From the NCBI RefSeq assembly GCF_000969905.1, contig NZ_CP009520.1, positions 2,914,001 to 2,978,000 of the forward strand: 64,000 nucleotides of DNA. Direction: 5' to 3'. The position numbers and the translations under genes were made by a program. The notes beneath the pieces are model-generated. The model saw only the letters and a program-made list of their open reading frames with translations. It was not told the origin of the DNA and ran no database searches. Source of the DNA: Methanosarcina vacuolata Z-761 (GTDB taxonomy: Archaea > Halobacteriota > Methanosarcinia > Methanosarcinales > Methanosarcinaceae). Position 1 is the first letter of the stretch, and each line of letters opens with the position of its first letter. Below are positions 28,332-38,308 of the stretch, piece after piece.

Positions 28332-30428
28332 TCAGTTCCTGCACCCGAAAAGGTTCTTAGCCTGCACGGAAGCGGGTGAAACCTCAGGAATATCGAAGCT
28401 GAGCTTTGTAATGTTTCGCAATTTTTCGATAATTGAGTTCTTTTTCGGACCTACAAGGCTGTGTTCCATTACCTCCGCAATAGAGGAGACAGGAATAATC
28501 TGGATTTTGTCCTTGTACGCCTTTTCGATAAGGACATCTGCCTCGTTTGCTTTGGGGATAATTACTTTCTTAATCCCGGCCCGGGCTGCAGCCTCAATTT
28601 TATAGGTAACTCCACCTACAGGCAGGACATCTCCCCTGACTGAAAGGGAACCTGTCATTGCCACGGTCTGGTCTACAGGAATCTTCTCAATGGCAGATAT
28701 GACAGCTGTTGCAATGGAAACTGATGCACTGTCTCCTTCAACACCTTCGTAGGTCCCTACAAACTGGATATGGACATCATGTCTGGATATATCCGTACCT
28801 GTCATGTTCTTAATAACGGCAGAGACATTTAGTACTGCTTCCTTCGCAATCGTCTTAAGCTTACCTGTTGCTATAATACGCCCTTCGGCTCCGGAAAGTG
28901 CCGGGGTGACTTCGGATACTATGGGAAGTACAATTCCTGAATCTCCACCCATGACTGCAAGCCCGTTGACTCTGCCCACAGCAGAACCTTTTCTAAGGAA
29001 GGATTCGTAATCTTTGCGGTTTTCCAGATAACTATCTGCAAGCTGCTGTTCAATAGATCTTGCAATTCTTTTTGCTGCAAGTACGTGCTCAGCGGTTGTT
29101 AATGGAGCGCCTTCGGAATGGGCAATGTCTCCTGCCACGCGTACAAGTCCACCAAGGTCACGAAGCTTCAGGGTAAGGTGCCCTTTCCTGCCTGCCCGCC
29201 TTCTGGCTTCCCGAATTACTTCTTCCACTGCACCTTCGTCAAAGTGAGGGATGTGCCCGTCCCGAACAACTTCCTGGGCAACGAAACGGACCATTTTCTT
29301 CCGGTTCTCAGGAGTATCTTCCATAGAATCCTGCATGTAAACTTCGTAGCCGTAACCTTTTATTCTTGACCTGAGCGCAGGGTGCATCTTCTGCACAGCG
29401 TCGAGGTTTCCTGCAGACACCATAATAAAGTCACAGGGTACTGGCTCGGTCTTGACAAGAGCTCCTGAACTTCTCTCGGACTGTCCGGTAATCGGGTATT
29501 CCTTTTCCTGGAGTGCAGTCAGGAGACTCTGCTGGGATTCCAGCCTGAGAGTGTTGATTTCGTCAATAAAGAGCACACCCTTGTGGGCCTTGTGGATATC
29601 TCCGGCTTCTACTCTGTCATGAGCAGGGGTTTCAAGCCCACCGGACTGGAATGGATCGTGCCTCACATCTCCAAGCAGAGCTCCTGCGTGGGCTCCGGTT
29701 GCATCGATATAAGGTGCATGCTCTTTGTCATAGTTTGAAACCGCCAGTTTCGGGATCATCATTTCTTCTTTAGGCAAGAACTGGCGGGTTAGCATGAGAA
29801 TCATAATACCTGCAATAATGCCCCAGAGTAATTGACCAACAAAATAAGAATAGATGATAATGCCCACAACAAAAAGCATCATGAGCATATTTCTGGCCTG
29901 AGCTTTCTTCCTGGCCTCCATCTTGTGAGCCATGACGATTTCTCTGCCCTTTCCGGCAGGAACTTCCCTTATTTTAGGATTGTTAAGGTCTTCCATGTTA
30001 GGATATACAAGGATATCCTTTAGCTCTTCTTTAGGGAGAAGTTCTGCCATTGCTTTCGCAAGCAGAGATTTCCCTGTTCCTGGGGTCCCTATCATCATAA
30101 TGTGCCGTCTCTGACCAGCCGCTTTTTTTACGACTTCGACGGCATGTTCCTGACCCAGCACCTGGTCGATAAGAAGTTTGGGTACATCTATATTAGAAGT
30201 ATTTTCAAAAGAAAAACCGATATCAACATATTCATAATCGTCCTGATCGGACTCAGACTCGGCCTTTACTTGATTGGATTCAGGCCCGGTCATACCCCCA
30301 CCGGACTCCTCCTTCTTCTGATCGGCCTTAGACGTGTCTACATCCTGAACGGGCTTGCTGATGTTTTCAGCGGGTTCGTCCATCTTCCCCGAAGACTCGT
30401 CTATGTTCTGATTATTATTATACACCAT
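28332..30428 (-). CDS. lonB: Archaeal membrane-bound Lon protease (LonB)
   Basis: About 698 residues. An acidic, low-complexity N terminus is followed by an AAA+ domain with Walker A GTPGTGKS and Walker B VLFIDEIN. A two-helix membrane insertion (LFVVGIIIYSYFVGQLLWG...) between the Walker motifs anchors it to the cytoplasmic membrane. The C-terminal S16 protease domain has the Ser in EGDSASVS and Lys in VTYKIEAA. It is the main ATP-dependent membrane protease of archaea. The start is ATG at 30428; a TTG at 30458 would add ten residues. A small protein built from the same membrane hairpin lies at 34364-34702. Confidence 0.96.
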   Translation of the reverse strand: MVYNNNQNIDESSGKMDEPAENISKPVQDVDTSKADQKKEESGGGMTGPESNQVKAESESDQDDYEYVDIGFSFENTSNIDVPKLLIDQVLGQEHAVEVVKKAAGQRRHIMMIGTPGTGKSLLAKAMAELLPKEELKDILVYPNMEDLNNPKIREVPAGKGREIVMAHKMEARKKAQARNMLMMLFVVGIIIYSYFVGQLLWGIIAGIMILMLTRQFLPKEEMMIPKLAVSNYDKEHAPYIDATGAHAGALLGDVRHDPFQSGGLETPAHDRVEAGDIHKAHKGVLFIDEINTLRLESQQSLLTALQEKEYPITGQSERSSGALVKTEPVPCDFIMVSAGNLDAVQKMHPALRSRIKGYGYEVYMQDSMEDTPENRKKMVRFVAQEVVRDGHIPHFDEGAVEEVIREARRRAGRKGHLTLKLRDLGGLVRVAGDIAHSEGAPLTTAEHVLAAKRIARSIEQQLADSYLENRKDYESFLRKGSAVGRVNGLAVMGGDSGIVLPIVSEVTPALSGAEGRIIATGKLKTIAKEAVLNVSAVIKNMTGTDISRHDVHIQFVGTYEGVEGDSASVSIATAVISAIEKIPVDQTVAMTGSLSVRGDVLPVGGVTYKIEAAARAGIKKVIIPKANEADVLIEKAYKDKIQIIPVSSIAEVMEHSLVGPKKNSIIEKLRNITKLSFDIPEVSPASVQAKNLFGCRN

Positions 30429-30852
30429 GGTTAGCTCACATATTCGAACGTTATTCAATAGACGTTACTGATCGATATATATACTTGACGTTATCGAAAA
30501 AATAAATGCTTTTAGTGATAAAATGATTGGCAAAAGGAGATGCCACAATAACGAGTTCCTCAAGTTACTGTGACCCCTCCATCTTTCTGCTAATTATATT
30601 AACTTACTGCATATATAATTAACCTGCCAGTATATCTCCCATTTATAGAAATGTTTTGTTATATAGAATTAATAGGACCTTTTTGTTGTTATATCATTTG
30701 CTAGATTTTTTTGTTTGGCTATAAAATGTAATGAAAAATTAATTCTCAAATCATTTAGATAATTTCAACTCTTTTATGCTATCCCCCCTATATATACATT
30801 GAGCATTATTCGCTAATTCATACTAGAGTTACTTAAGAGCTGATTCATAACT
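30429..30852. other. Divergent intergenic region upstream of lonB
   Basis: AT-rich, with no gene seen. TATA-like stretches occur near 30475 and 30610-30620. Confidence 0.5.
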
Positions 30853-31370: not shown

Positions 31371-32321
31371 ATGTCCAGAAGCAAGGTAAGAAATATTCTC
31401 CTTCTGAAGCAAATTCACAGTGCAGTAACCCATATCAAAAAAGGCAAGCTGGATAAAGCCCTTGAAACCCTAGATAAAGCCGAAGACTCTGCAAGGAAAG
31501 CAAAAGCCACTGACGCTGTATATTACATTCTTTTTATGCGCGGAGGCATCTATTATACTGAGTCGAAATACGATGAAGCCCTCGAAACCTACGAAAAGGC
31601 CCTCGATGCAGGCTTAGAACTTCTTAAAAACGATCCTGAAAACACCAATTACCAGCACTACATGGGTACAACTCTGAGCAATACCGGAAACCTTCTCAAA
31701 AGAAAAGGCGAAAATCCGCAAGCTGCGGAATATTATGTCCGCGCCCGTGAGACCTATGAAAACCTCCTGGCAAAAGAACCTGAAAATGCAGTCTTCCGGT
31801 CTGCTGCCGGCGAGAACCTGAACAATTATGCAGCTCTCCTTACGGACATGGGTTCTTTTGAGCAAGCATGCGAAGTCCTCAGTCAGGCAATTGAGCTTTA
31901 TGAAAAGCTGCTTGAAGAAAAGCCAGAAAACCTGGGCTATCAGGCTGAACTTGCAGTTGCGCTCAGCCGGCTTGGAAACTGCCTGGTCCAGCAGGGCCCG
32001 GAAAAATCCGATACTGCAAAACAGAGCCTTGAAAAAGCCCTGACTATGCAGGAAAACATCTTCAACCAGCAGCCTGAAGATGCAACTATCAAAGATGCTA
32101 TTGCTTTAACCCGGGAAAGGCTTGAAAAACTGGAAACAATGAAAATACAGGAAAAGCCTGAAAGCCTGGAAAACCTGGAGAATTCGGAAAATCAGGAAAA
32201 GCAAGAAAATCTGGAAGAACAGGAAACCTTGGAGAACCCGGAAAAACTGAAACAGGAAAAGCCAGAAACTCTGGAAAACCTGGAGAATCCGGAAAATTCG
32301 GAAAAGCCGGAAAAGCTTTAA
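31371..32321 (+). CDS. Tetratricopeptide-repeat protein
   Basis: A 316-residue protein with no signal peptide. Residues about 10-245 are helical TPR-like repeats; the units around LKNDPENTNYQHYMGTTLSN, LAKEPENAVFRSAAGENLNN and LEEKPENLGYQAELAVALSR share the 48-residue spacing seen in the large TPR-nitrilase protein at 34928. The C-terminal 60 residues are low-complexity Glu/Asn/Pro/Lys (repeats such as ENLENPEN). Function unknown; probably a scaffold. An IS element now separates it from the LonB-like membrane protein and the larger TPR gene. Confidence 0.82.
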   Translation: MSRSKVRNILLLKQIHSAVTHIKKGKLDKALETLDKAEDSARKAKATDAVYYILFMRGGIYYTESKYDEALETYEKALDAGLELLKNDPENTNYQHYMGTTLSNTGNLLKRKGENPQAAEYYVRARETYENLLAKEPENAVFRSAAGENLNNYAALLTDMGSFEQACEVLSQAIELYEKLLEEKPENLGYQAELAVALSRLGNCLVQQGPEKSDTAKQSLEKALTMQENIFNQQPEDATIKDAIALTRERLEKLETMKIQEKPESLENLENSENQEKQENLEEQETLENPEKLKQEKPETLENLENPENSEKPEKL

Positions 32322-32389: not shown

Positions 32390-34136
32390 TAATCCTACCA
32401 ATAACGATTCTATTACGATGGCAGATATTTCTCCAGATTCAGAAAAGAAAATAACGATGCTTGTTTAGTGTCCATTTCTTCCACAATAATTTTGCTTTTT
32501 TTGGATTCTTTTTCCTGAACTACTGCAATCTTAATTTCAGACAGTTTTTCAATCAGTTGTTTCATAGAAAACCCATATATCTTTGCTTCCCAGGCCAAAT
32601 ATCTGTAGAAAAGCAGGCCAATCATAGCCAAAAATACATGAACCCTTATATTTTCATCCTTGTGGTGATAAACTGGTCCTACAGGGACAAGTAAATGGTC
32701 GTTCAACAGCTTAAAATCGTCTTCAACAAGATTTTTACTGTTATATGTTTTCACTATCTTTTTAGTATGCCACTCCTGCTTATCCGTAAACAGAATATTC
32801 TTACCAAACGTTTTTTCACACCTTTTTTCGTTTTCCTCATCAACCCAGAACTTCAACTGAGGTTTTTTCTTACCTTCAGGAGCTGCAATTATTTCGTATT
32901 TTATGACAGTCCTGAATTTTTTCAGAATAATTTCTGAAACTTCATTTTCGACACTGCTTCTGTTTCTCTCTTTTCCTTTACTGCTTTCTAATCTTCTCTG
33001 CAGGTCTTGGAGTTGATCAATTATTTTTGATTTGTTTGTTTCATAAGTGCTTTTTTGAAGTTTGTAAGTCCCTTCATTATAGGTAATTACGGTTGTGAAT
33101 TCTGTTCCGTAGAACTGATGTTTTGTCCGGCACCCAAAAATCTCGCTACCTTTTGTGTTTTTATACAAGTAATTATACCTTGAAAGTGGAACATCAAGGA
33201 GTTCCTCAGCCTGATTTGCTTTTGCGGCTCCTACAAAACTCATTTTTGAGATTACCTTTTCAATGTTATCCTTAGAGTTGTTACCTTTATCGAAAACAAG
33301 AACAAGATCTTCAGAACAGATATTTAATTCAGTCAGTCGATTTATGATTTTGTCTACAATGCCCGAAAATTCTTCCGAATCAGGAACATTTCCAGGATAA
33401 GTTTCGTGAATAAAGGGTATATTGTTTTCATTTACAGCCAGTGATACACAAATTTGATTTTTGTCTTTACGATGCTTTTTGTTATATCCTTTATGAAGCA
33501 GTTCACTTTTTTCATCATAATTAGTGGCAAAGGTAAACCAGTTTGATTCATCAACAAACATTATTGATGGAGTTAACCCCTTCTCAACAAGAACCCGACA
33601 AAGGTCGTCTTCAATCTTTTTCATCGTATCTGAATCAATGTAACTCATTTGGTTCAGGAAATTCTGGCAATTTAGTTTGTGAGGAAACTTCCACATGAAA
33701 GATATTGGGGATTTTTTGAACCAGTCTTCGATCCCGTTTTCACTTAAAATGCCGTGACTTTTCCCAATTATATCGAGTAAAAGGTATTCTCCAACACTCA
33801 ATCCATCTATTAATTTTTTGTCAGTATGCTTGTTTACTATGTCAATGAATCCAAGTTCTTCATTTACATGAAGGAGTGCGGCAAGCTTGCCGTACTCAAA
33901 AGACTTAAGTTTATCATAAGGCATCGATTCACATTGTTTTTTCATTTCAAGTATTTTTTCTGCACTACCCAGATAAATCTGAAAAACAGTCTTTACCTTT
34001 CCGTTAACCCTGGCAGCTTCTACAATGTACCAGTAAGGTTTGCCTTTGATAAGTTTCTTTCTCAAAAATACCATACTCTTTAATTAGGATCAACATTTAT
34101 AAATACTTTTCCAATTAAATCGTTAGTATTAGACCT
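32390..34136 (-). mobile_element. IS1634-like insertion sequence
   Basis: About 1.75 kb enclosing one transposase gene. Imperfect terminal inverted repeats of about 24 bp: left end 32390-32413 and right end 34113-34136 share 17 of 24 positions by eye, including ctaacgatt-like core taacgatt. Exact boundaries and a target duplication could not be fixed. The transposase is intact, so the element may be active. Confidence 0.75.
32413..34074 (-). CDS. IS1634-family transposase
   Basis: A 553-residue DDE transposase of the IS4/IS1634 superfamily. The N terminus is FLRKKLIKGKPYWYIVEAAR; catalytic-type acidic residues are in IMFVDESNWF and LVLVFDKGNNSKDN, and the C-terminal DHLLVPVGPVYHHKDENIR and VHVFLAMIGLLFYRYL are typical of the family. 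Uninterrupted. It lies between the TPR gene and the LonB-like membrane protein. Confidence 0.93.
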   Translation of the reverse strand: MVFLRKKLIKGKPYWYIVEAARVNGKVKTVFQIYLGSAEKILEMKKQCESMPYDKLKSFEYGKLAALLHVNEELGFIDIVNKHTDKKLIDGLSVGEYLLLDIIGKSHGILSENGIEDWFKKSPISFMWKFPHKLNCQNFLNQMSYIDSDTMKKIEDDLCRVLVEKGLTPSIMFVDESNWFTFATNYDEKSELLHKGYNKKHRKDKNQICVSLAVNENNIPFIHETYPGNVPDSEEFSGIVDKIINRLTELNICSEDLVLVFDKGNNSKDNIEKVISKMSFVGAAKANQAEELLDVPLSRYNYLYKNTKGSEIFGCRTKHQFYGTEFTTVITYNEGTYKLQKSTYETNKSKIIDQLQDLQRRLESSKGKERNRSSVENEVSEIILKKFRTVIKYEIIAAPEGKKKPQLKFWVDEENEKRCEKTFGKNILFTDKQEWHTKKIVKTYNSKNLVEDDFKLLNDHLLVPVGPVYHHKDENIRVHVFLAMIGLLFYRYLAWEAKIYGFSMKQLIEKLSEIKIAVVQEKESKKSKIIVEEMDTKQASLFSFLNLEKYLPS

Positions 34137-34363: not shown

Positions 34364-34702
34364 TTAAAGGTTATCCTTTGAAAACAGCAGCATGTGTACA
34401 TAAAGCAAAATCAGCAGTCCTGCAACGACCCCTGAGAGGAACTGGAAAGTAAAGTACGAGTAAACAACCAGCCCAAGCACGAAGAGAGTAACAAGAATGT
34501 TTGCAAGCCGGACTTTCTTCCTCATCTGGGGATCTTGAGGAGTTCCTGCTTCTTTTTCATCCAGGGAACACTCCCTTAAGTAACTCCTTTCCCTTTTTAT
34601 TAGGAAATAAAGCCTCAGAATGAGAACATCAATAACTATGCCCCAGAGAAGCTGTCCGATATAAAAGGTATAAAAGAGGATAGCTGCGAGAAAAATACTC
34701 AC
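34364..34702 (-). CDS. Small four-helix membrane protein built from two LonB-type membrane hairpins
   Basis: About 112 residues from the GTG at 34702. Two hydrophobic halves each resemble the membrane insertion of LonB 4 kb away: the first carries the identical run GQLLWGI in the same position, and the second (RKKVRLANILVTLFVLGLVV, then YSYF) matches LonB at about 20 of 42 positions by eye. There is no AAA+ or protease sequence. The frame stays open upstream (IEIPEFRKKEKIYLLL) behind a strong GGGGGGAGGG, so a nonstandard start near 34735 is possible. It may be a LonB partner, decoy or anchor, or a duplicated remnant; function unknown. Confidence 0.6.
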   Translation of the reverse strand: MSIFLAAILFYTFYIGQLLWGIVIDVLILRLYFLIKRERSYLRECSLDEKEAGTPQDPQMRKKVRLANILVTLFVLGLVVYSYFTFQFLSGVVAGLLILLYVHMLLFSKDNL

Positions 34703-34927
34703 AAGCAGCAGGTATATCTTTTCTTTTTTTCTAAACTCAGGAATCTCGATTCTACCCTCCCCCCGAATCTCGATCTTATTCTTATTTCATTTATCTGTAC
34801 ACATTATTTACCTTTTCCCTGTGTGCTAAGAATAAGAAGCAAAACACCTCTTATTCTCACACTTTTTGCTACAACTCCATAGTAAAAAAACAAAATGTTT
34901 AAACCATCCTGAATTTATTCTTTTATT
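34703..34927. other. Divergent intergenic region
   Basis: Contains a G-rich SD-like block on the minus strand (about 34755-34765) and AT-rich promoter-like sequence for the plus-strand TPR-nitrilase gene. No gene seen. Confidence 0.4.
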
Positions 34928-37900
34928 ATGTCAGAGAGTTTGAGAGATTCAGCAGAAAGACAATTTCAAAAGACTTTATCTTTAATGCAAGAAGGCAAAT
35001 TAGAAGAAGCTTTAAAAGAACTTGAACAAGCCGAAGAAACCGCAAAGTTTCTCTTAAAAGATCCCAAAAACGAATTTTTTCAGTCAAACTTCCAGAAGAG
35101 CTTTGACGATGTTTTCACTCTTGGGTATAACTTACATAAAATAGGACGTTTCTCTCAAGCGCAAAATTTCTACGAACTATCTCTATTGATCTCTCAAAAA
35201 CTCCTCAATAACGATCCCGAAAATATAGCTTACCAATCTTACGTAGGAGGGACACTAAACAATTTAGGAAACTTGCTTTCTGATATGGGACGCATTGAAG
35301 AGGCAAAACAAAGGTATGAAAAAGCACTCGAAATGAGGCAAAAACTACTCAAAAACGGCCCCGAAAACGTATCTTACCAATCTTACGTAGGAAAGACACT
35401 AAACAATTTGGGAAACTTGCTTAAAAATATGGGGCTCGTTGAAGAGGCGAAACAAAGGTACGAAAAAGCACTCATAATCTATGAAAAACTACTCGAAAGC
35501 GACTCCGAAAACGTATCTTACCAGTCTTACGTAGGAATGATACTAAATAATTTAGGTACCTTGCTTTCTGAGATGGGGTTCATTGAAGAGGCAAAACAAA
35601 GGTATGAAAAAACACTCGAGATCTATGAAAAACTACCCGAAAACGTATCTTACCAATCTTATGTAGGAACGACACTAAACAATTTAGGAAACTTGCTTTC
35701 TGATATTGGGCTCATTGAAGAGGCGAAACAAAGGTACGAAAAAGCACTCAAAATGAGGCAAAAACTCCTCAATAACGACCCCAAAAACATAGCTTACCAA
35801 TCAGATGTAGCAATGACACTAAACAATTTAGGAAACTTGCTTAAAAATATGGGGCTCGTTGAAGAGGCGAAACAAAGGTACGAAGAAGCACTCGAAATCT
35901 ATGAAAAACTACTCGAAAGCGACCCCGAAAACGTATCTTACCAATTTTACATAGGAGGGACACTGAGCAATTCAGGTGCCTTGCTTTCTAATATGGGATT
36001 CATTGAAGAGGCGAAACAAAGGTACGAAAAAGCACTCGAAATTTACACCGAACCTATGCAATACCTGACGATAGGTAGAAAGACCCATTCGATAATGAAA
36101 CTTATTGAGTTAAATACAGAACAGGCAAAAAAAGACAATCAATATGATCAGATGAGATGCCTGAAAGAAGCAGTCGAGCTGTGCAAAAAATATCAGGATT
36201 TTTTTATTAAATATGAGCTGAAGCACGAAAGAGAACTGGTTACTGGGGCAGGGCTGAGTGCATATATTGACTTTCTGCTCAAGAACATCAGAGCTGAGCC
36301 CAATACAGGAAAACGTGCAGGTGAATATAAAAAAGCTATAAAAGCAGTTGAAGAGCTAAAATCTGTTGAAGAAGACGAGGCTGTTTCAAAACTATGTGAT
36401 TCGACCTCATATTACCTTTCTGGAAGAAAACTTGTAAATGAAGCACTTTCTTCAAAGCAACCTAATCTGGAGCTGCTCAATCAGGCAATAGAACAGTTTA
36501 AAAAAGCAACTGAAACTTATGAAAAAGCAAACGTTTGCTATTGCGTCTATACCGGGCTGTTTGAAATTCTAACGGAAATTGAAAAATCTAAAGAAGTTGA
36601 TGTGCCAAGATTAAAGAATGTTGTAGAGGAGGTTACCAGAACTCTGTCTGATGATGATAATCCAAGCATCTGCGCTTCATTTATGGACCTCCCACAGATT
36701 TTTGAAGAAAAAGATTGTAAAACTAGGGATAAACTTCTTTTTGATTTCTTGGAAAAAATTAATTCAATTGAATATCGGCCTCTTGAAAACCTTTTTGAGT
36801 ATATTCACAGGAGAACAAAGGACTATTTTGAAGAGCCTTTCAACCCTATCAAGCTGATCTACGAAAATTGGAAACTCAAAGTTATCTTTGATGACCCTGA
36901 AAAAGTAAAAAGCAAGTTAACAATCAAAGCAGGAAACAGAACGCTTTTTAACAAATTCCTTACCTCCGAAGAAAAAGAAAACAATTCTCTTGAAATTGAT
37001 TATCTTGAAAAAAAATATTTCCCGGAAGGAAAAGACGAAATTACTTTCAGCGTAAGAGGGCAGAAAAAACCAGTCATAAAGTCAATTGATTATTTTGAGA
37101 GCATACAAGGAAATAAGAAAATTCGGATATTACAACATGACTGCTGCAATAACTCTTTTGAAGGTTCTAATTTACGAATTGCGGCTGTGCAATTGAAATA
37201 TCATGCTTATGAAGAAGATTCCATTGTGAAACTTACGGCTGATGAAGCTTATTACAGGAAAATAATGGCAATTCTTGAAGCTGTGAAGGAAAAAGCTGAC
37301 ATTTTGGTATTCCCTGAGTTTTCTATACCTTTTGAATATCTCGAAGATATACAGCAATATGCCGATGAAAATGGGGTTATTGTCGTTGCAGGCAGCCACT
37401 ATGTTCAGGAAAAGAACCTTGAGAAGTATGGAAAACTGTTCATCCGCGAGTTTAGAGAAGAAGATTTAAGGAAAAATATCTCTCCTATTGTGATTCCTGA
37501 TTCTAAAATCATACACAATGAAAAAGCGCTGGCAGCAAGGGATGAAAGAGGATGCGGTTTTGAGGAAGGTATGGAAGCAGGTGAAGTGAACCACATTCTC
37601 AAACTTAGAGAAGACCTTAGAGTGGGGGTTATGATCTGTTATGAGTATGTGACTGATGATTTGAGAAAGCGTTTGATACGTGCCTGCGACGTAATCCTTG
37701 TGCCTCAGACAAATCCATCTCCAAAGATATTTTATAGAAAAGCAAACAGTGAGCTCAATATCCAGCTTTGTGCTGGAAACCGGGCACACGTTATGGTAAA
37801 TGGAATCTATACCTGGGGAAAGGATAAAACAACAATACATGGAGGGTCTACTGGAGTTGTTTTAACACTTGACAAGCACTCGTACTCAAAACTTGGGGAG

Positions 37901-38308
37901 AATGAAACCGTCATAGAGCCAGTTGACGGCGTAATGGAACAATTTGTATATATAATGTCAATAAATACGGATTTTAATACATCAAGGGATACTCAGACAG
38001 GGCAGGAGCCAATAACCTTAAAGCTCATCCACATTTTTGAAGAAGCTGAAATTCCCGATAAATTAAAAGAAAAAGGCAGGGAATTTGTGGAAATAATTAA
38101 CAGAATAAACTCCTGTAATGATCATAATGCATTGAAATGCATGCTTATAAAAGAAAGGGGAAGTATTGAGAAAAAAACAGATGATGTTGAAACGTCCCTA
38201 ATAAAACAATTCTCTCCTTTAACAAACAAACATATTCAGAATCTTGATGAACGTAAAATTGAAGAATTAAAAGAAAAATGCCTTTTTCTTGTTATCCCTA
38301 ATAATTAA
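34928..38308 (+). CDS. TPR-nitrilase fusion protein (carbon-nitrogen hydrolase domain)
   Basis: An 1126-residue protein. Residues about 1-95 are a helical N-terminal region; about 94-378 are six near-identical 48-residue TPR-like units (each with YQSYVG, LNNLGNLL and EEAKQRYEKAL); about 380-740 are a helical middle part ending in a beta-rich segment. Residues about 750-1040 are a nitrilase-superfamily hydrolase with Glu797 in VFPEFSIP, candidate Lys866 in NEKALAARDE and Cys904 in VMICYEYV, so the Glu-Lys-Cys triad appears intact. It would hydrolyse a C-N bond of an unknown substrate under control of the repeat scaffold. The fourth unit lacks four residues. No signal peptide. Confidence 0.85.
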   Translation: MSESLRDSAERQFQKTLSLMQEGKLEEALKELEQAEETAKFLLKDPKNEFFQSNFQKSFDDVFTLGYNLHKIGRFSQAQNFYELSLLISQKLLNNDPENIAYQSYVGGTLNNLGNLLSDMGRIEEAKQRYEKALEMRQKLLKNGPENVSYQSYVGKTLNNLGNLLKNMGLVEEAKQRYEKALIIYEKLLESDSENVSYQSYVGMILNNLGTLLSEMGFIEEAKQRYEKTLEIYEKLPENVSYQSYVGTTLNNLGNLLSDIGLIEEAKQRYEKALKMRQKLLNNDPKNIAYQSDVAMTLNNLGNLLKNMGLVEEAKQRYEEALEIYEKLLESDPENVSYQFYIGGTLSNSGALLSNMGFIEEAKQRYEKALEIYTEPMQYLTIGRKTHSIMKLIELNTEQAKKDNQYDQMRCLKEAVELCKKYQDFFIKYELKHERELVTGAGLSAYIDFLLKNIRAEPNTGKRAGEYKKAIKAVEELKSVEEDEAVSKLCDSTSYYLSGRKLVNEALSSKQPNLELLNQAIEQFKKATETYEKANVCYCVYTGLFEILTEIEKSKEVDVPRLKNVVEEVTRTLSDDDNPSICASFMDLPQIFEEKDCKTRDKLLFDFLEKINSIEYRPLENLFEYIHRRTKDYFEEPFNPIKLIYENWKLKVIFDDPEKVKSKLTIKAGNRTLFNKFLTSEEKENNSLEIDYLEKKYFPEGKDEITFSVRGQKKPVIKSIDYFESIQGNKKIRILQHDCCNNSFEGSNLRIAAVQLKYHAYEEDSIVKLTADEAYYRKIMAILEAVKEKADILVFPEFSIPFEYLEDIQQYADENGVIVVAGSHYVQEKNLEKYGKLFIREFREEDLRKNISPIVIPDSKIIHNEKALAARDERGCGFEEGMEAGEVNHILKLREDLRVGVMICYEYVTDDLRKRLIRACDVILVPQTNPSPKIFYRKANSELNIQLCAGNRAHVMVNGIYTWGKDKTTIHGGSTGVVLTLDKHSYSKLGENETVIEPVDGVMEQFVYIMSINTDFNTSRDTQTGQEPITLKLIHIFEEAEIPDKLKEKGREFVEIINRINSCNDHNALKCMLIKERGSIEKKTDDVETSLIKQFSPLTNKHIQNLDERKIEELKEKCLFLVIPNN

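What the first reader, a model, noticed from the sequence alone, without database searches (positions are those of the whole stretch)
34364..34702. Free-standing protein made of two copies of the LonB membrane hairpin
Both halves of this roughly 112-residue protein align to the membrane insertion of LonB (28332-30428), the first including an identical GQLLWGI, the second at about 20 of 42 positions by hand. It has no ATPase or protease part. It could insert beside LonB and modulate it, or be a duplicated remnant. A G-rich SD-like block with no standard start at the right distance makes translation uncertain.
Basis: partly seen in the sequence, partly recalled or inferred. Interest (0 to 1): 0.62.

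Follow-up and report, generated by a model that had tools for sequence, protein, structure and literature searches.

The report
Loose double copy of LonB anchor
Next to the gene for the membrane protease LonB, these methane-making archaea keep a small gene whose protein is little more than two copies of LonB's own membrane anchor, so it may plug into LonB from the side and tune what it degrades, although this has not been tested.

Summary
Both halves of the protein at 34364-34738 (minus strand) match the LonB membrane hairpin (BLASTP 21/48 and 22/52 identities), far above shuffles that keep the hydrophobic pattern (z about 8). A LonB-only hairpin profile finds both halves in a six-frame search of the whole genome.

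It is not a remnant. Of 30 Methanosarcina genomes, 23 have an intact copy, under purifying selection (median dN/dS 0.15). It lies in fixed order hairpin gene - convergent TPR gene - lonB in 30 of 30 genomes that have it.

New here: other proteins of the same order also carry the hairpin, and their turn motif tends to match the LonB of their own lineage.

Best explanation, inferred: a four-helix membrane protein that packs against LonB's hairpins as adaptor or modulator, in the manner in which LapB's membrane helix binds FtsH. Interaction is untested. Main rival: the hairpin is a general membrane module with no LonB function. The start codon is unresolved; selection suggests that translation begins upstream of the GTG. 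No Pfam or NCBIfam family covers it.

The parts
34364..34738 (-). Conserved body of the double-hairpin protein (124 aa plus stop); GTG-start form is 34364-34702; the stop-free frame reaches 34786
34589..34738 (-). Hairpin 1 (residues 1-50), turn YTFYIGQLLWGI; D37 and R42 in its second helix are conserved in this family but not in LonB
34385..34528 (-). Hairpin 2 (residues 71-118), turn YSYFTFQFLSGV (relatives YSYFTxQFIWG)
34752..34764 (-). G-rich, SD-like block ahead of the conserved body; no ATG/GTG/TTG in frame at the right distance
   Evidence: low synonymous change here
28332..30458 (-). lonB, ATP-dependent membrane protease
   Evidence: TIGR00764 E 2.6e-286
29763..29918 (-). Membrane hairpin of LonB (residues 181-232)
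   Evidence: coordinates computed from the ORF start
31371..32321 (+). TPR gene that lies between the hairpin gene and lonB, convergent with the hairpin gene, in all 30 genomes checked
   Evidence: Pfam TPR; order
32413..34074 (-). IS1634-family transposase inserted between the hairpin gene and the TPR gene in this genome; no match to it lies there in the other loci
   Evidence: NF033559 E 5.3e-71; gaps

Best explanation
The gene makes a small membrane protein of four helices, that is two LonB-type hairpins joined by a charged cytoplasmic linker. It arose from the membrane hairpin of LonB, or from a hairpin common to both, near the base of a clade of three genera, and has been kept beside lonB since. 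Most likely it packs against the hairpins of the LonB hexamer through the shared Y-x-x-x-x-x-Q-x-x-W-G turn and helix surfaces. There it would act as adaptor or modulator: it changes which membrane or membrane-near substrates reach the AAA+ pore, or limits LonB activity. The TPR protein encoded between the two genes is a candidate soluble partner. Shown: similarity of both halves, conservation, purifying selection, gene order. Inferred: topology, contact with LonB, direction of the effect, role of the TPR protein.
For: Similarity beyond composition and found by a LonB-only profile in whole genomes. Specificity: in 58 genomes of the phylum outside the class, that profile gave one match each in 56 and none in 2, every match in an open frame of at least 617 aa, LonB-sized. 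Residues conserved in the family fall on those conserved in LonB: Y23, W32, G33 in half 1; N80, Y93, G103 in half 2. Charge and hydropathy give the same topology as LonB, with basic ends and linker and uncharged turns. Selection: median dN/dS 0.15 over 133 usable of 253 pairs. Gene order hairpin(+) TPR(-) LonB(+) in 30 of 30 distinct genomes (38 loci). Precedent: LapB, an adaptor with a TPR domain, binds the membrane protease FtsH through its transmembrane helix (PMC9356133, passages read).
Against: No interaction, expression or phenotype data. The TPR gene on the opposite strand separates it from lonB, so the two are not one operon. LonB persists without it: 5 of 30 genus genomes have no match (in G012 the contig ends there), G019 keeps a truncated copy, G015 a frameshifted one, and among other genera it was found only in g4 (1 of 2) and g5 (4 of 4). 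Similar single hairpins occur in proteins with no known link to LonB. The TPR gene stays in G028, G024 and G019, where the hairpin gene is gone or broken, so the two are not strictly tied. The AlphaFold2 model is weak (pLDDT 67.7, pTM 0.40; no break at the second turn).
Confidence: 0.5

Rival explanations
1. The hairpin is a general, re-usable two-helix membrane module of the order Methanosarcinales. LonB and this protein both use it, but the protein has its own function, for example as a small membrane scaffold, without touching LonB.
For: The LonB profile also finds single hairpins in a 179-aa protein of this genome with an unassigned C-terminal domain, in PLDc_N-type proteins, in front of a Yip1 domain, and double hairpins in another family f3. 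The protein has conserved residues that LonB lacks: D37, R42, H115.
Against: It does not explain the fixed place beside lonB in 30 of 30 genomes, nor why turn motifs of free-standing hairpins tend to follow the LonB variant of their own lineage.
Confidence: 0.33
2. The protein is a decoy or inhibitor: it occupies hairpin contacts and lowers LonB assembly or activity, or is itself degraded and so titrates LonB, as an anti-adaptor.
For: Two hairpins without enzyme parts would be expected to compete for hairpin-hairpin contacts (inference). The YejM/LapB pair shows that such competition within the membrane exists for FtsH.
Against: No direct evidence; sequence cannot separate it from an activating adaptor.
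Confidence: 0.12
3. A decaying remnant of a lonB duplication without function.
For: G019 has a deletion-truncated copy and G015 a frameshifted copy; the window's clade lacks a standard start codon.
Against: 23 of 30 genus genomes intact; dN/dS about 0.15; its own conserved residues.
Confidence: 0.03
4. Generic similarity of hydrophobic segments.
For: Both are leucine/isoleucine-rich helices.
Against: Pattern-preserving shuffles z about 8; eight other membrane proteins of the same genome (DUF1673) reach at most 5 bits with the hairpin profile; specificity.
Confidence: 0.02

Closest known systems
Archaeal LonB (TIGR00764; MEROPS S16) - its membrane insertion
   Same: Same hairpin: length, turn motif, basic residues before helix 1; 42-44% identity over 48-52 aa for each half
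   Different: No AAA+ and no protease part; two hairpins in tandem; conserved D37, R42 and H115 of its own
LapB (YciM), TPR adaptor of FtsH in E. coli
   Same: Works-like parallel only: a membrane helix that binds a membrane AAA+ protease, and a TPR protein in play (PMC9356133, passages)
   Different: LapB carries TPR and helix in one chain, its helix is not described in those passages as a copy of FtsH's anchor, and the hosts are bacteria
HVO_0784, CAAX-protease-like neighbour of lonB in Haloferax
   Same: A membrane-protein gene next to archaeal lonB (PMC4343526 and PMC9263693, passages)
   Different: Cotranscribed with lonB and of a different family; a null mutant showed no evident phenotype according to those passages, though an effect on the proteome is mentioned
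Small membrane regulators of Methanosarcina mazei (MtrI, MtrR, a small protein that inhibits ammonium transport)
   Same: Small proteins acting on large membrane complexes in the same genus (titles and abstract starts only)
   Different: Not copies of part of their target as far as those abstract starts say; not compared by sequence here

Membership tests
LonB protease (TIGR00764) | AAA+ module with Walker motifs and Lon_C proteolytic domain | tested here: not met
   no Lon, AAA or TIGR00764 match for the 124-aa protein; LonB itself matches with E 2.6e-286
LonB protease (TIGR00764) | Membrane hairpin with Y..(Q)..WG turn | tested here: met
   both halves match; in the window the second half has S in place of W at 102
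Pseudoprotease (inactive full-length homologue) | Keeps the enzyme fold with lost catalytic residues | tested here: not met
   The enzyme domains are absent, not inactivated
LapB-type adaptor of a membrane AAA+ protease | Binds the protease within the membrane | not testable with these tools
   Needs co-purification; only one chain can be predicted here
LapB-type adaptor of a membrane AAA+ protease | TPR domain in the same polypeptide | tested here: not met
   No TPR in the protein; a separate TPR gene lies beside it
DUF1673 (PF07895) | Profile score above the cut-off of 30.4 bits | tested here: not met
   11.3 bits for the window protein; eight of the genome's true members score at most about 5 bits against the hairpin profiles

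The most novel reading that the evidence does not exclude
In the order Methanosarcinales the LonB membrane hairpin is a docking cassette. Several unrelated membrane proteins (double-hairpin proteins beside lonB, Yip1- and PLDc_N-type proteins, a 179-aa family) carry a copy that co-evolves with, or is copied from, the LonB of the same lineage, and plug through it into the LonB ring as adaptors, substrates or inhibitors. A membrane AAA+ protease would thus be served by a whole set of anchor mimics.
Probability: 0.25. Interest if true: 0.82.

Novelty: new variant of a known kind. Interest (0 to 1): 0.6.

Why it matters
[quoted passage not shown] They name substrates, but the passages read name no adaptor or regulator acting in the membrane. 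A conserved neighbour built from LonB's own anchor gives a direct, testable candidate, and the lineage-matched turn motif suggests that the hairpin does more than tether LonB. If the docking reading holds, anchor mimicry would be a way to regulate membrane proteases, and the motif would list their partners.

Tried and rejected
Chance or composition: rejected. Remnant: rejected as a general account. Same operon as lonB: rejected, a TPR gene on the opposite strand lies between. Membership in DUF1673: weak hits (2 of 28 members) followed up and rejected. Other Pfam hits (RAMP, Coa3_cc, DUF7103, PGAP1_TMD) are weak and scattered over members and were set aside. Solved structures: nothing for the protein (best E = 1). 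For LonB, 3k1j skips the hairpin in the alignment and 4zpx aligns through it; whether the hairpin is resolved in 4zpx was not checked. The AlphaFold2 model is too weak for a fold search, so none was run. A tree of 32-residue hairpins puts each half in its own clade (0.93 and 0.98) but is otherwise poorly supported, so I draw no origin from it. Gene conversion: in G038 a 29-base stretch is identical between lonB and the N-half of its double-hairpin gene, but in G052 the same residues use different codons, so copying is not a general account.

Dropped rows: one search used 36 free-standing hairpins picked by hand and the alignments; hairpin genes of most Methanosarcina genomes and several PLDc_N-type rows were left out. 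One search used 38 of the 185 genomes, chosen for quality and spread. The search of genome contigs used two peptide patterns and leaves out near relatives of the window. In one search, G015 was left out of dN/dS because of its frameshift, and 120 of 253 pairs because their dS lay outside 0.1-1.5.

Full report
What is there. On the minus strand at 34364-34702 lies a 112-aa frame starting with GTG. The frame is free of stops up to 34786, and conservation covers at least 34364-34738 (124 aa). I call it the hairpin protein. BLASTP aligns residues 1-50 to LonB 181-232 (22/52 identical, E 1e-11) and residues 71-118 to LonB 181-228 (21/48, E 4e-13). Against shuffles that keep the hydrophobic/polar pattern the scores have z = 7.8 and 8.0, with 0 of 100,000 shuffles reaching them; half 1 against half 2 gives z = 5.3. 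Charges and hydropathy suggest the LonB topology twice: basic end inside, helix, uncharged turn, helix, basic linker inside, and again. AlphaFold2 gives an all-helical model of low confidence (pLDDT 67.7, pTM 0.40), with a break at the first turn but not at the second.

Conservation in the genus. A search of 30 genomes of the genus, own genome included, found the protein in 24 at E 1e-43 or better. Of these 23 have an intact frame and one (G015) is frameshifted in helix 1. A further genome, G019, keeps a copy cut short by an internal deletion. Five have no match: G012, whose contig ends there, and G016, G017, G024, G028. Named records include Methanosarcina sp. DH2, KYL-1, MSH10X1 and 2.H.T.1A.6 (17 loci). 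Pairwise dN/dS has a median of 0.15, range 0.05-0.32, over the 133 of 253 pairs with dS between 0.1 and 1.5. This is a protein under selection, not debris.

Wider spread. With a profile of 23 members (A1), 147 of 185 genomes of the order gave a match. Those at E 1e-43 or better are the hairpin protein: 24 in genus g1, 4 of 4 in g5 and 1 of 2 in g4. Most of the other rows listed are LonB-sized frames, so the profile of the free-standing protein finds LonB itself in whole genomes. Not every row of that search was listed.

Gene order. In 38 of 38 loci, standing for 30 distinct genomes (24 g1, 4 g5, 1 g4, and the named genome UBA293), the order is hairpin gene(+), TPR gene(-), lonB(+), followed by tldD and tldE where the stretch is long enough. 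The hairpin and TPR genes converge, 3-533 bases apart (826 where the TPR frame is split); the window is the exception at 2049 because an IS1634-family transposase sits between them. A TPR gene on the other strand therefore separates the hairpin gene from lonB. Neither gene lies within about 5 kb upstream of lonB in 11 of 11 stretches from genera g3, g7, g9, g10, g11, g12 and g13. In the genus, G016 and G017 lack both, while G028, G024 and G019 keep the TPR gene with the hairpin gene absent or broken, so the two are linked but not inseparable.

Specificity and other hairpins. A profile built from 11 LonB hairpins only (A2) was run over 38 genomes that I chose from the order and over 70 drawn from the phylum. 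In the 58 phylum genomes outside the class it gave one match each in 56 and none in 2, always in an open frame of at least 617 aa; these frames were not checked further. The 8 matches in short frames all lie in the window's own family, in G000, G121, G122 and G124. Within the order, free-standing matches fall into several kinds: the hairpin protein; a family with one hairpin and an unassigned C-terminal part (own genome, contig C2 at 105844, 179 aa, open-frame count); PLDc_N-type proteins (Pfam E 1.9e-7 for one); a hairpin ahead of a Yip1 domain in G178 (Pfam E 1.9e-13); a few short ones; and double-hairpin proteins of 142-197 aa in family f3 (G038, G040 twice, G045, G051, G052). In G038 and G040 the last lie about 4 kb downstream of lonB, after tldD and tldE, on the other strand.

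Lineage-matched turns. LonB of family f1 has turns such as YSYFVGQLLWGI or YSFYVGQLLWGI; f3 has YSxYT(G/Q)TLIWGI (g18), YxFYTGxLIWGI (g19) or YAFFSGMLIWGI (g20). Of 36 free-standing hairpins picked by hand, 25 have their own genus as (joint) best of 15 genera over the 12-residue turn. At family level, 24 of 25 from f1 fit f1 better (1 tie), and 10 of 11 from f3 fit f3 better. Against this: half 1 of the hairpin protein is never best with its own genus (0 of 5 rows) but with other f1 genera; the rows are not independent; and the families have different numbers of variants. In G038 the match extends to 29 identical bases between lonB and the N-half, and a 28-base core occurs three times in that stretch; in G052 the same residues have different codons. 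I read this as a real tendency, with copying in one lineage and shared constraint in another; it is not proof of contact.

Features of its own. Across 28 members R42 and H115 are invariant and D37 is found in at least 90%; LonB has other residues at these places. Conserved LonB positions Y23, W32, G33 (half 1) and N10, Y23, G33 (half 2: N80, Y93, G103) are kept, with W102 replaced in several members, including the window. The protein thus keeps the LonB turn and has added polar residues within or at the edge of the membrane part.

Start of translation. Many relatives have ATG after GGGGGTCAGC or similar; one has CTG at that place; the window's clade has no ATG, GTG or TTG in frame before the GTG inside helix 1. 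In seven members of that clade, codons 1-12 ahead of the GTG have pN/pS 0.21, like the rest of the gene, and codons -16 to -11 have 0.10. The G-rich block (-10 to -1) changes little even at synonymous sites (pS 0.10). Translation from upstream of the GTG, by a start codon that I cannot identify, fits best. Non-ATG starts are common among newly found small frames of M. mazei (ATG 56% against 83% for annotated ones; passages of PMC11456600).

Mechanism. I favour contact with LonB through hairpin packing, as adaptor or modulator, at 0.5. The functional parallel is LapB, whose transmembrane helix binds FtsH and which recruits LpxC with its cytoplasmic part, and YejM, which competes for LapB in the membrane (PMC9356133, passages). 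A TPR gene always lies between the hairpin gene and lonB; that its product works with the hairpin protein is a guess. The main rival is a general membrane module without LonB function (0.33).

Novelty. No Pfam or NCBIfam model covers the protein (28 members against Pfam), and no solved structure matches. Searches of the held open-access library for LonB with archaea and transmembrane, Methanosarcina with LonB, AAA protease with membrane hairpin and Lon, LonB with membrane anchor and related words, and Lon protease with Methanosarcina and transmembrane hairpin listed no title or abstract start that describes such a protein. I read passages of five papers; the library lacks most subscription papers.

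Noticed in passing
own genome G000:C2:98051-106400 (loci L155, L238-L245), outside the window: Nine DUF1673 matches in tandem lie beside the 179-aa single-hairpin protein. Some PLDc_N-type hairpin proteins of genus g7 (L082, L146) begin with a GWCPN motif like that of these DUF1673 proteins.
   Followed up: partly
L139 (G178) against L141 and L156 (G038, G040): The hairpin ahead of a Yip1 domain closely resembles the second hairpin of the f3 double-hairpin proteins (AVIISI..IYSF.....WGI.AA..IMILT...SG.IS), which suggests one shared hairpin family across different proteins.
   Followed up: partly
L141:9365-10706, L176: The f3 double-hairpin genes sit beside frames that look like nucleotidyltransferase (MNT-type) genes, recalled from the motif only; G040 has two such hairpin copies.
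   Followed up: no
window 34928-38308: The divergent neighbour of the hairpin gene is an 1126-aa protein with many TPR repeats and a borderline carbon-nitrogen hydrolase match; it is intact here but broken into several frames in G003.
   Followed up: no
L077 (G019), reverse strand, first 400 bases: The hairpin gene has an internal deletion that joins the first turn (GQLL) to the end of the gene (SGDNL, in another frame), leaving a 79-residue open frame.
   Followed up: partly
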